DNA from: Paracyclopina nana
Taxonomy: Eukaryota; Arthropoda; Copepoda; Cyclopoida; Cyclopettidae
DNA length: 64,000 bases
Direction: 5' to 3'
Assembly (NCBI GenBank): GCA_019096065.1
Contig: JAGUCH010000005.1
Coordinates: forward strand, 7,440,001-7,504,000
A program made the position numbers and the translations under genes. Under the pieces are notes generated by a model. It did not search any database. It was not told the origin of the DNA and was given only the letters and a program-made list of their open reading frames with translations. Positions 19,296 through 64,000 of the stretch are shown here, piece by piece (the first letter of the stretch is position 1; the number at the start of each line of letters is the position of its first letter).

Positions 19296-22200
19296 CTGCA
19301 AAAGAAAAGTACAATGAGAAAGCTGCAAGTGTCTCTAATTTGCAAGCAAAAGCATTGTTAATCAAAGAGTCGTCAGTAATCAAGTCAAAAAAGGAGAACG
19401 CTGAGCCTGGCCCCACGTTGGGCGCCATGTTTTAATATCTTAGTTCTTTCAGACATTGGGTCCTATTGCATGAAAAGGCACAAGAAGCATCAACTGGAAT
19501 TGCTCACAAGTATTAAGAAGCAGGTGGTTTTTACCCCACGTTGGGCGCCATGTATTAATATCTTAGTTCTTTCAGACATTGGGTCCTATTGCATGAAAAG
19601 AAACAAGAAGCATCAACTGGAATTGCTCACAAGTATTAAGAAGCAGGTGGTTTTTACCCCACGTTGGGCGCCATGTATTTAAATAGACTACAATGTTATT
19701 GAGTCTTGGCAAGGTACTCACAAGTAAGGAGCAATGTTAGAAAAGGTTTGATTAAAAGAAGCCTTGAATCAAGGCAACATTCAATCCATTTCAATCCCAT
19801 GTTGGGTGCCATGTGGTAATAGCTAGCCCATCATGTCTTTCAAATCATCCAAGATCCCAATTGATTGCCATGGCCTAATAAACTAGCTGGACTTGCTATT
19901 GCAGTAAAATCCCCCATGTTGGGTGCCATGTATGACATACAAGAGAGTAGAAATGATCAGAGAAAACAGATAGGGCAAAGAAAACAGAATAGACAAGGCT
20001 GTGTGATGTAGAGAGAGAGAGAGAGGTTGTAGGTCAGGTAATCACTTCAAGTGTGGTCTGTGTATTTTCTCCAAACCTGATGATAATGACAATTGGGTGG
20101 TGGCAGCATCTGGGAACCCCCCTTTGTTTTTTTTTATAATTAAGTACTATGTACACACACAACACTCAGGCGAAGAGTGACAAGTTTAGGTTTGCTTGTG
20201 CTCTTGCTGGTGGTAAGATTCTTGGTTCTCCATTGTGGAAGTGGCTGAGGCATTGGCATTGGCCTTTCCATGGCTGGAAAAGGTGCTCAAGTCCTCAGTG
20301 CTGGAGGAGTTGGCCGTGGAGCCTCCCAGCAAGCTGTAATCCAAATCGGAACCACTGGGAGTGGTTCCACGAATGCTCAGAGAACCTAAGAGGTCCCTGT
20401 CCCTGTCAACTCGGCGCCTAGAACTGGCTGAGCCAGCAATGGATGATCCTCTGTAAAGTAAGGGCCATGGTTTGTTTACATTTCAGATTGGTATGCAACC
20501 CGGGGTACGTTGGGCGCCATGAAGTAATATCAACTACCCCACGTTGGGCGCCAAGGTTCTTAAGGTAAGGACTTTAAGGTACAAGGAGCTGTGTGTATCA
20601 AAGCAGAAAAAGCTAAGCCATAACCAACATAAAGCAAAAACATAAAAAAACAGTAACAACACAGGAGGAAAAAAGCACTGATGGATTACTTAGTTTGGAG
20701 GTATCAAAATCCTTGCAGTTAGTCCTTGGTTGTTAATTTGCTACAAATAAAAGTTAAGACACTCAGGTCTGACCTGGACTCTTTGTTCATTAAAAGGAAT
20801 GTATAGTTAAGCTCATCTTCATAGTCCCTGCACAATTGAAAACTGATAATAGAAGCCCAACACCTTCATAGTAAATTACGCAGTTTTGACCAAACTTGAA
20901 ACCTGGCATATCTCTCTTCATGTTGGGTTTACAGAAAAGTGTGCTAAATCAATGTTGCTTGTATTGGCAACAGACAACTTTCACTATTTATGCCATAACT
21001 TTGAAAAATGACATTTAGGCGGGCAAAATGGCCTAAAACTGAAAAGCTGAAAAGTGCGTCAAGGCATAGAGCTTACCTGAGTTTGTTCTTCAGATTGGTG
21101 ATTTCCCTCTCCTTGGACTCATTCTCAGCAATGAGGTCTTCCAGTTCACGTTGGATCTTGCGCCTTGCAGCCTTCTCACGTGACACTTCTTCCTCAGTTT
21201 CATCCAGTTGGCGTTTCAGCCCCTTGATTCGGCTATTCACCTGTAGTTGGACAAATACACAAGTCAAGGTTTGATCACACAGATTTTTGATCCGGACAAG
21301 TTTTTTTACCTTTTCGGATTGCTCCTTGTACTGGTCAGCATGCCTGCGTTCATCCTCCAGCATGAGCAAGTTCTCCTTCATCTTCTTCTCAGCTTTCCTG
21401 TTCAGCTTGGCTTGAGCCATCCTCTCACTGAAACAAAACAGTCAAATTCATCAAATAAACTCAAGCTTCAAATCCTATCAGCATTTTTGCATCAAATGAT
21501 ATTTAATCTCATTAAATGACATCCAGATAATCTCAAGAAATGGCATTTAAACTCATAAAATAATATCAAATGGCATGAAATATCATCAAATGGTATCATG
21601 GTATAAAATACCATCAAATGGTAAAATGGCTTCATAGTACCAGGTATCAACTTTCATCAAATGGTGTCATGGTAAGAAAAAATCATCAAATGGTATCATG
21701 GTACCAAATCTCATCAAATGGTATCAAGGTACCAAATCTCATCAAATGCAACTAAATCTCATCAAATGATATCAAGGCACCACATCTCATCAAATGGTAT
21801 AATGGTACCAAATCTCATCAAATGGTATAATGGTACCAAATCTCATCAAATGGTATAATGGTACCAAATCTTATCAAACGCAACTCAATCTCATCAAATG
21901 GTATCATGGTACCAAATCTCATAGAATGGTATCATGGTACCAAATCTCATCGAATGGTATCATGGTACCAAATCTTATCAAACGCAACTTAATTTCATCA
22001 AATGGTATCATGTTACCAAATGTCATCAAATGGTATCATGTTACCAAATGTCATCAAATGGTATCATGGTACCAAATCTCATCAAATGGTATCATGGTAC
22101 CAAATCTTATCAAACCTAACTAAATCTCATCTAATGGTATCATTGTATCAAATCTCATCAAATGGTATCATGATATCAAGTCTCATGAAATGGTATGATT

Positions 22201-63345: not shown

Positions 63346-64000
63346 TGCAAAAGAGTACAATTTTAAAGCTAGAAAAGAGCATTTTTAGTAAATATGTTTT
63401 ATACTAGAATAGCCCAAAAATTTTGGTTACGTTTCTGTACAAATGATGAGGCATTTTATTTTGCAAGTAAGGCACACACGTAAAAAACTGAATCAGGCCT
63501 CGTAAAACGATATTGGTAAGTCACATTACTAATGATTTAGCACCGACTCAAGCCAAAAAGACTTTTTTTACGACCACCTACATTCAAATCTGTAAACATT
63601 GCTTTTTTCGGCAGGTGAAAACAAACTTTCACTCCAATACATTTATGGCTATTATTTCTATTTTTTTCCAATTTTCTACGATATTTGAAAAAAAATTATA
63701 GCTAAGAACTTTTCATATTTCAAACGGAATTTTCACATTTTTAAGAACTTTTGACAGTTTTTCAAAATCTTTGAACTCCTCCAAAAAACTTATATTTTAA
63801 TATTTAATAATTTATAATATGACTTTAGACATTTTTAAGACATTTTGACCCACTTTTAAGTGTAAAAAGGCTTAAGACTCAAAAGGCTGTTTTTCCCCAA
63901 TATTTTAATATTTAATAAAAAATAACTTTAATTTCTAACATTTAATATAACTTTTGACATTTTTAGCTAACTTTTTTAAAAGGCTGTCATCTTTCCCAAT
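63346..64000. other. Right edge, no gene seen
   Basis: AT-rich DNA. No exon recognised. The rest of the myosin II 5' end should lie further right. Confidence 0.6.

What the first reader, a model, noticed from the sequence alone, without database searches (positions are those of the whole stretch)
21428..64000. Each intron of the myosin II gene carries its own private tandem word
Sixteen or so introns and intron segments each contain a different degenerate array (12-61 bp units; for example 28-bp at 21.5-22.3 kb, 43-bp at 31.0 kb, 22-bp at 32.6 kb, 19-bp at 44.4 kb, 20-bp at 36.6 and 55.0 kb, 12-bp at 56.8 kb). Words hardly spread from one intron to the next and stop near exon borders, while ~1760 codons stay intact. 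This looks like repeated local birth and growth of minisatellites from whatever sequence was there, not spread of one satellite. Seen directly; the mechanism (slippage, unequal exchange or break repair with local templating) is inference.
Basis: partly seen in the sequence, partly recalled or inferred. Interest (0 to 1): 0.72.

Follow-up and report, generated by a model that had tools for sequence, protein, structure and literature searches.

The report
Myosin introns grown from private repeats
The introns of one animal myosin gene near a chromosome end are full of short tandem repeats, each worded differently but often with a unit length of about 10 or 20 bases, which suggests that introns can grow by repeated local birth and decay of small repeats.

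Summary
The minus-strand gene is a non-muscle-type myosin II, larger than the window: 22 coding exons found from 20,186 to 89,203 (window plus 30 kb fetched), 5,937 coding bases, including a 14-nt microexon. TRF arrays cover 30.5% of 63 kb of intron and 1.4% of exon sequence. Privacy: six of the 47 larger arrays were tested by unit genome-wide; hits lie in their own intron apart from near-chance hits. A 23-bp unit outside the gene gave 309 hits. Words in different introns are close to unrelated; arrays within 1.5 kb in one intron share words more often, usually on the same strand. Two additions. First, the format is shared: 19-22 bp is favoured, and such units are often two related ~10-bp halves. 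Outside the arrays the introns keep a same-letter ~10-bp periodicity, so much of them looks like array debris. Second, look-alike arrays cluster within 1 Mb of contig ends, and this gene lies 118 kb from a TTAGG-capped end. Best reading: recurrent local minisatellite birth, growth and decay in a chromosome-end compartment. The molecular step is inferred.

The parts
20186..64000 (-). non-muscle-type myosin II heavy chain gene, the part inside the window; the identified coding exons continue to window-equivalent 89,203 (C5:7,529,203)
   Evidence: tblastn with the genome's own muscle myosins, GT-AG borders, open frame through the joined exons E4 to the stop; nearest solved relatives of the N-terminal piece are non-muscle and smooth-muscle myosins (myosin-9, -10, -11)
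21643..22260 (.). 28-bp array (104/132-bp higher-order periods)
   Evidence: 11 of 11 genome hits of the unit lie in this intron
22865..23142 (.). 41-bp array
25488..25976 (.). 21/127-bp array
28509..28988 (.). 61-bp array
30902..31272 (.). 43-bp array
   Evidence: 6 of 6 genome hits of 26 bases of the unit lie here
31656..32084 (.). 10/20-bp array
32552..32760 (.). 22-bp array
   Evidence: 8 of 12 genome hits here, the other 4 at three mismatches, control 1
33142..47257 (.). 14.1-kb intron with 18 TRF blocks (13 with units of 10-36 bp: 36, 19, 17, 20, 20, 20, 20, 19, 19, 10/20, 19, 20, 11/22; and five short or long-unit blocks)
36519..37410 (.). 20-bp array, 43 copies
   Evidence: 30 of 49 genome hits here, 19 elsewhere against 11 for the reversed-pattern control
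40210..41316 (.). 19-bp array, 58 copies
48421..56219 (.). 7.8-kb intron with 13 TRF blocks
54807..55674 (.). 20-bp array, 37 copies
   Evidence: 28 of 33 genome hits here, 5 elsewhere against 10 for the control
56633..64000 (.). 9.0-kb intron, the part inside the window (whole intron to 65,592, with 14 TRF blocks in all)
56758..57202 (.). two 11-bp arrays
   Evidence: 25 of 26 genome hits of two joined units lie in this intron, control 1

Best explanation
The gene lies 118 kb from a telomere-capped contig end, in a part of the genome where minisatellites are common. Its introns have grown by repeated local events. A short stretch duplicates in tandem, typically in steps of about one or two helical turns (10 or 20 bp). 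The array expands, sheds variant words to close neighbours, then decays by point mutation until only a faint 10-bp rhythm remains, and the next array starts nearby. Each word is therefore private to its intron while unit length is shared. Exons, splice sites and a 14-nt microexon are kept clear by purifying selection. Shown: privacy of six tested units, favoured length, same-letter rhythm between arrays, exon avoidance, chromosome-end clustering of look-alike arrays. Inferred: that the rhythm is decay, the selection, the molecular step (slippage, unequal exchange or templated repair) and the reason for the 10-bp step.
For: Privacy: six units searched genome-wide with up to 3 mismatches; hits in own intron 8/12, 28/33, 30/49, 11/11, 6/6, 25/26, against reversed-pattern controls of 1, 10, 11, 0, 0, 1. 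Positive control for dispersal: 23-bp unit at 12.2 kb, 309 hits, control 0. Different-intron pairs: 34 of 847 beat all 40 dinucleotide shuffles (4.0% against 2.4% expected); same-intron pairs within 1.5 kb: 8 of 40, 7 of the 8 on the same strand. Fading edges: 50 of 80 flanks score above the 95th percentile of random intron windows, 4 expected. Decay: 41 kb of non-array intron has a helical index of 0.0172 (z 8.7) against 0.0031 (z 4.2) in 116 kb of 12 interior samples; at spacing 10, AA, TT, CC and GG are raised (1.10, 1.08, 1.17, 1.12) but AT, TA, CG, GC are not (1.01, 0.94, 0.99, 0.98), so letters repeat, not just composition. Unit length: 23 of 49 at 19-22 bp. Location: look-alike matches fall in 30 50-kb bins, 26 within 1 Mb of a contig end, 19.6% expected; TTAGG repeats at the C5 right end and near both C1 ends (listing capped to C1).
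Against: No sister species, second individual or read data, so birth and turnover are inferred from one sequence. Only six of 47 arrays were tested by unit. A chromosome-end position is not sufficient: a second myosin gene at window 1.4-3.6 kb and one at C2:0.78 Mb have compact heads, and L029 lies 2 Mb from an end yet is 33% arrays. The centre-over-edge homogeneity that unequal exchange predicts is weak (36 of 59 arrays of the gene and other loci, 0.890 against 0.868, p 0.014). Quantisation at 10 bp rests mostly on the 19-22 and 10-11 peaks; without units of 18-23 bp it is not significant (R 0.32, n 25). The dimer structure of ~20-bp units is also seen elsewhere (3 of 10 units). The rhythm is not confined to introns: 89.2-94 kb upstream has the same index (0.0190, z 3.1), window 1-20 kb a weaker one (0.0062, z 3.0), exons 0.0052 (z 2.1). 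The 22-bp and 36.5-kb units have more outside hits than their controls (4 against 1, 19 against 11).
Confidence: 0.73

Rival explanations
1. One ancestral chromosome-end satellite with an A-rich ~10-bp core (for example GCCAAAA) spread through introns and loci and has since diverged, so the words only look private.
For: DNA searches find arrays elsewhere 66-86% identical (66-78% over 100 bp or more) to about a dozen intron arrays, mostly near contig ends. Cores such as TTTGGCTCAAAAT recur, and the 16-mer ATTTTGAGGCAAAATT is shared by units at C2:1.0 Mb and C4:8.0 Mb. Different-intron pairs slightly exceed chance (4.0% against 2.4%). Two of four compared pairs agree at 16 of 20 letters, more than any of 4,000 random 20-mers reached for that query.
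Against: For three query units, random or dinucleotide-shuffled 20-mers reach 15 of 20 with probability 0.0005-0.005, shuffled units reach 16-18 at best in 2,000, and roughly 3,700 arrays of 18-22 bp are extrapolated from 8 in 200 kb sampled, so several matches of 15 of 20 are expected by chance. Six of six tested units are not dispersed at 3 mismatches.
Confidence: 0.15
2. The introns are kept helically phased by selection, like the Periodic An/Tn Clusters of C. elegans, and the arrays are a by-product of keeping A-tracts on one face of the helix so that a gene in repressive chromatin stays expressed.
For: Strong 10-bp power of AAA/TTT tracts in arrays (9.8 against a null of 2.3), weaker and broad in non-array introns (3.9 at 10, 3.3 at 11 and 12, null 2.2); exons show none (2.2 against 2.2). 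At spacing 5, CG and GC pairs are lowered (0.88 each, z -4.9 and -3.6), a hint of letter-independent phasing. Gene near a chromosome end.
Against: In non-array introns at spacings 10 and 20 only same-letter pairs are raised; AT, TA, CG and GC are not. No expression or chromatin data.
Confidence: 0.12
3. Arrays were brought in ready-made by transposable elements such as Helitrons or MITEs that carry tandem repeats.
For: The 23-bp unit outside the gene behaves so: 309 hits, many of the 100 listed in pairs 112-114 bp apart.
Against: Two DNA searches with window 28,400-64,000 gave 109 matches; by query position 80 fall on arrays, 28 on exons and one on a 97-nt intron, so no dispersed flanking element appeared (assigned by hand; only the best candidates are scored). 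Arrays fade into their flanks rather than ending sharply.
Confidence: 0.05
4. Assembly artefact: repeats collapsed or inflated by the assembler.
For: No read data seen; array lengths could be wrong.
Against: Copies differ from each other, words are unlike between places, and the coding frame is intact between them, with a 14-nt microexon in the longest intron.
Confidence: 0.03

Closest known systems
Subtelomeric minisatellites (recalled: human minisatellites cluster near chromosome ends)
   Same: short-unit tandem arrays, locus-specific words, look-alike arrays enriched towards chromosome ends
   Different: here they fill introns of one conserved gene, favour a ~20-bp unit, and leave a periodic signal between arrays
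Intronic minisatellites of C. elegans (CeRep25B, 24 bp; a 19/20-bp AGCCTCAACCAAAA(A)TTCTC repeat; PMC4039745, passages read)
   Same: units of ~20 bp in introns, the second A-rich with CCAAAA
   Different: those occur in several places or genes; the six units tested here are confined to one intron each
Periodic An/Tn Clusters of C. elegans (PMC7725773, passages read; the ~10-bp spacing is recalled)
   Same: intronic ~10-bp rhythm with A/T tracts
   Different: here the rhythm outside arrays is mainly same-letter (repeated words), not letter-independent A/T phasing

Membership tests
minisatellite | head-to-tail arrays of units of roughly 6-100 bp | tested here: met
   47 gene arrays of at least 100 bp and 3 copies, 46 of them with units of 10-61 bp (gene units)
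minisatellite | copy-number variation between individuals | not testable with these tools
   one genome only
dispersed satellite family | same consensus at many unrelated loci | tested here: not met
   six of six units tested; positive control 309 hits. The other 41 of 47 gene arrays were not tested by unit; those between 28.4 and 64.0 kb were covered by DNA searches only, which found more distant look-alikes
subtelomeric minisatellites | enrichment towards chromosome ends | tested here: met
   26 of 30 bins within 1 Mb against 19.6% expected; array content of 19 samples falls with distance (Spearman -0.68, p 0.001)
Periodic An/Tn Clusters | A and T tracts phased at ~10 bp irrespective of which letter | tested here: not met
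   AT 1.01 and TA 0.94 at spacing 10 in non-array introns; against this, CG and GC are lowered at spacing 5
Periodic An/Tn Clusters | support of germline expression in repressive chromatin | not testable with these tools
   no expression or chromatin data
transposon-borne tandem arrays | dispersed element sequence flanking the array | tested here: inconclusive
   none seen in 35.6 kb, but only the best candidates are scored and very common words are skipped

The most novel reading that the evidence does not exclude
Intron growth in this chromosome-end compartment has a length rule but no sequence rule: a machine with a step of about one helical turn (for example slippage or strand exchange on nucleosome-wrapped DNA) makes tandem units of 10, 20 or 40 bp from any local sequence, and nearly all of the long introns are its products at different stages of decay.
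Probability: 0.3. Interest if true: 0.75.

Novelty: new variant of a known kind. Interest (0 to 1): 0.5.

Why it matters
Intron growth is often put down to transposons (general knowledge). Here 30% of 63 kb of intron is tandem array, and the rest keeps a decayed-looking repeat rhythm, with no dispersed element seen in the part searched. If the length rule holds genome-wide, unit length becomes a direct readout of the step size of the process that makes minisatellites, which is an open question.

Tried and rejected
Unit palindromes: many units seemed to hold inverted repeats; against shuffles 2 of 46 gene units were significant at 0.05 (2.3 expected), so dropped. The excess among relatives (11 of 21 against mononucleotide shuffles) largely disappears against dinucleotide shuffles (2 of 21, 1.1 expected), and those rows include overlapping descriptions of the same arrays.

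First word-similarity test: with mononucleotide shuffles 11% of different-intron pairs looked related; with dinucleotide shuffles only 4.0%. I use the second.

First periodicity control (95 kb of other loci) silently left out the sampled stretches without any TRF row; one search repeats it with all 20 stretches, and I use that.

Organism: not identified. TTAGG telomere repeats suggest an arthropod or a relative (recalled, weak); one paper search on this gave nothing usable. Rfam at gathering thresholds found nothing in the window.

Literature: searches (listings and abstract starts seen, at most 15 papers each) and passages of two papers showed no report of a helical-turn rule for intronic minisatellite length. 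This is a narrow search of one library, and is not evidence that none exists.

Full report
What is there. The window is C5:7,440,001-7,504,000 of an unnamed 92-Mb genome in 10 contigs, an animal's by its myosins. The minus-strand gene is a myosin II heavy chain whose N-terminal piece is nearest to smooth-muscle and non-muscle myosins among solved structures. I fetched the next 30 kb and mapped exons with the genome's own muscle myosins and GT-AG borders. The coding exons found run from 20,186 (stop codon side) to 89,203; the first coding exon was not found. Between exons E2 and E4 the protein lacked the equivalent of SMLQ; a search of the 18.5-kb intron for a 14-nt exon with splice sites gave one strict match, GTCCATGTTGCAAG at 83,400-83,413. 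The pattern was drawn from the expected residues, so the match is a prediction until RNA confirms it. The joined exons E4 to the stop read as one open frame (1,864 codons plus stop). In all, 22 exons, 5,937 coding bases, 21 introns of 60 to 17,673 bases.

Arrays. TRF gives 87 blocks in the gene, 47 of at least 100 bp and 3 copies; they cover 19,228 of 63,081 intron bases and 81 exon bases; 12 of 21 introns hold arrays of 3 or more copies (13 with the 21-bp row at 25,512-25,976), and no circular shift in 1,000 gives so little exon overlap.

Private words. Six units were searched in the whole genome with up to three mismatches. Hits in the own intron, of all hits: 22-bp at 32.55 kb 8 of 12; 20-bp at 54.8 kb 28 of 33; 20-bp at 36.5 kb 30 of 49; 28-bp at 21.6 kb 11 of 11; 26 bases of the 43-bp unit at 31.0 kb 6 of 6; two 11-bp units at 56.8 kb 25 of 26. 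The reversed-pattern controls gave 1, 10, 11, 0, 0, 1. By contrast the 23-bp unit at 12.2 kb, outside the gene, gave 309 hits with control 0. The other 41 larger arrays were not tested this way.

Look-alikes. DNA searches with 28,400-64,000 gave 109 matches: 80 on arrays, 28 on exons, one on a 97-nt intron (assigned by hand from the query positions). The array matches are 66-86% identical (66-78% over 100 bp or more) and involve about a dozen intron arrays. I fetched 13 such places: 12 have a main unit of 19-21 bp, one 25 bp. Four compared pairs agree at 15, 15, 16 and 16 of 20 letters. For the three query units a random or dinucleotide-shuffled 20-mer reaches 15 of 20 with probability 0.0005-0.005; the largest value was 15 in 4,000 random draws each and 16-18 in 2,000 shuffled draws each. 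About 3,700 arrays of 18-22 bp are extrapolated for the genome from 8 in 200 kb sampled at round positions, so a handful of 15-of-20 matches is expected without descent. The two 16-of-20 pairs, and a 16-mer shared by units at C2:1.0 Mb and C4:8.0 Mb, leave room for some real kinship. BLAST E-values are inflated because each copy adds to the score.

Local spread. Against dinucleotide shuffles, 34 of 847 different-intron pairs beat all 40 shuffles (4.0%, 2.4% expected), 8 of 148 farther same-intron pairs (5.4%), and 8 of 40 same-intron pairs within 1.5 kb, 7 of these 8 on the same strand. So words pass to close neighbours but hardly to other introns. Array flanks hold further decayed copies: 50 of 80 flanks exceed the 95th percentile of random windows (of 92 flanks, those touching exons were dropped; neighbouring arrays were not).

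Shared format. Of 49 gene arrays (80 bp or more, 3 copies or more), 23 have units of 19-22 bp and 6 of 10-11 bp; elsewhere 8 of 39 have 19-22 bp (p 0.013) and 13 of 39 have 15 bp, against 1 of 49 in the gene (p 6e-5). For 18-23 bp the contrast is 23 of 49 against 11 of 39 (p 0.08). Lengths of gene units (n 48) cluster on multiples of 10 (R 0.57, nominal p 2e-7, nearly the same for 9.5-10.5), but without units of 18-23 bp the clustering is not significant (R 0.32, n 25). Units of 18-23 bp are often dimers of ~10-bp halves: half-shift identity 0.437 against 0.271 shuffled, 9 of 22 at p 0.05 or less; the same tendency is seen elsewhere (0.397 against 0.256, 3 of 10).

Debris between arrays. After masking every TRF block, the remaining 41 kb of intron has excess identity at spacings near 10, 20 and 30. 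A codon-balanced helical index is 0.0172 (z 8.7), against 0.0031 (z 4.2) in 116 kb from 12 interior samples and 0.0031 (z 3.6) in 69 kb from 8 samples within about 1 Mb of a contig end; single samples range from -0.0012 to 0.0147, the highest being array-rich L029. It is also high upstream of the found exons (89.2-94 kb, 0.0190, z 3.1), weaker in window 1-20 kb (0.0062, z 3.0) and in exons (0.0052, z 2.1). At spacing 10, same-letter pairs are raised, unlike-letter pairs are not, although CG and GC are lowered at spacing 5. That is mainly what decayed tandem words leave, and not what letter-independent A/T phasing would leave. Masking is imperfect, so some of this signal may come from weak arrays below the TRF threshold, which is the same reading.

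Place. The last 500 bases of C5 are TTAGG/TTGGG repeats; TTAGG runs lie near both ends of C1 (9,278 hits in the genome, only the first 100, on C1, listed). The outermost exon found is 118 kb from the C5 end. Look-alike matches, with exon matches, C10 and this locus dropped, fall in 30 50-kb bins, 26 of them within 1 Mb of a contig end (19.6% expected, p 5e-15; 24 of 28 without the C5 right end); one of the 30 bins is the 97-nt intron match. Array content in 19 sampled stretches falls with distance from the end (Spearman -0.68, p 0.001), with the exception of L029, 2 Mb from an end and 33% arrays. In all 20 stretches, 14 have under 5% arrays and 6 have 7-33%. Position is not sufficient: another myosin gene in this window and one near a C2 end are compact.

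Mechanism and standing. The simplest account is recurrent local duplication in short steps, expansion, local seeding and decay, allowed in introns and barred in exons. Replication slippage, unequal exchange and templated repair are not separated here; the weak centre-over-edge homogeneity (36 of 59 arrays, p 0.014) gives only faint support to unequal exchange. Why the step should be about 10 bp is open; nucleosome wrapping or helical constraints on strand exchange are guesses. Locus-specific minisatellites near chromosome ends are a known kind; a favoured length with free wording, and introns that look made of repeat debris, are what would be new.

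Noticed in passing
window 12,167-12,385: 23-bp array outside the gene whose unit has 309 hits (3 mismatches or fewer); the 100 listed lie on C1-C6 and C9, often in pairs 112-114 bp apart and many at C5:6.8-7.3 Mb; looks carried by a dispersed element. An array of it also lies in L025.
   Followed up: partly
L010:9,400-9,413 (window-equivalent 83,400-83,413): A predicted 14-nt microexon (GTCCATGTTGCAAG, coding the middle of R-S-M-L-Q-D) with canonical splice sites in an 18.5-kb stretch of intron.
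   Followed up: partly
L001-L008; C7:1,136,132-1,168,459 and C2:3.50, 3.55 Mb: Many muscle-type myosin heavy chains whose head matches in one piece without introns, mostly in open frames of roughly 1,300-1,700 codons, four in a row on C7.
   Followed up: no
window 1,413-4,268: A compact myosin gene with a head in ~2.2 kb and an SH3-like end, in the same chromosome-end region as the giant one (SH3 by eye).
   Followed up: no
window 19,411-19,679 and about 20,500: A 123-bp unit in 2.2 nearly identical copies with CCCCACGTTGGGCGCCATG; its reverse complement resembles a tRNA primer-binding site of LTR elements (recalled), and a similar piece lies in the last myosin intron.
   Followed up: no
window 14,271-14,607 and 17,240-17,428: 15-bp arrays inside open frames coding threonine-rich repeats next to kelch-like sequence (kelch by eye).
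   Followed up: no
L051 (C1:1-500) and C1:12,660: C1 begins with a GGCCT repeat, while the first perfect TTAGG runs listed start at 12.66 kb on the minus strand.
   Followed up: no
window 56,459-56,539: The 97-nt intron here has one 79% match at C4:619,461-619,542, where no myosin hit was listed.
   Followed up: no
L016 about 8,472-9,025 and L038: Arrays at C2:1.0 Mb and C4:8.0 Mb share the 16-mer ATTTTGAGGCAAAATT in their units, so some words are shared between chromosomes.
   Followed up: no
L028, L029, L030 and others: Outside the gene the commonest unit length among sampled arrays is 15 bp (13 of 39, 3 of them in the fetched region around the gene), almost absent from the myosin introns (1 of 49).
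   Followed up: no
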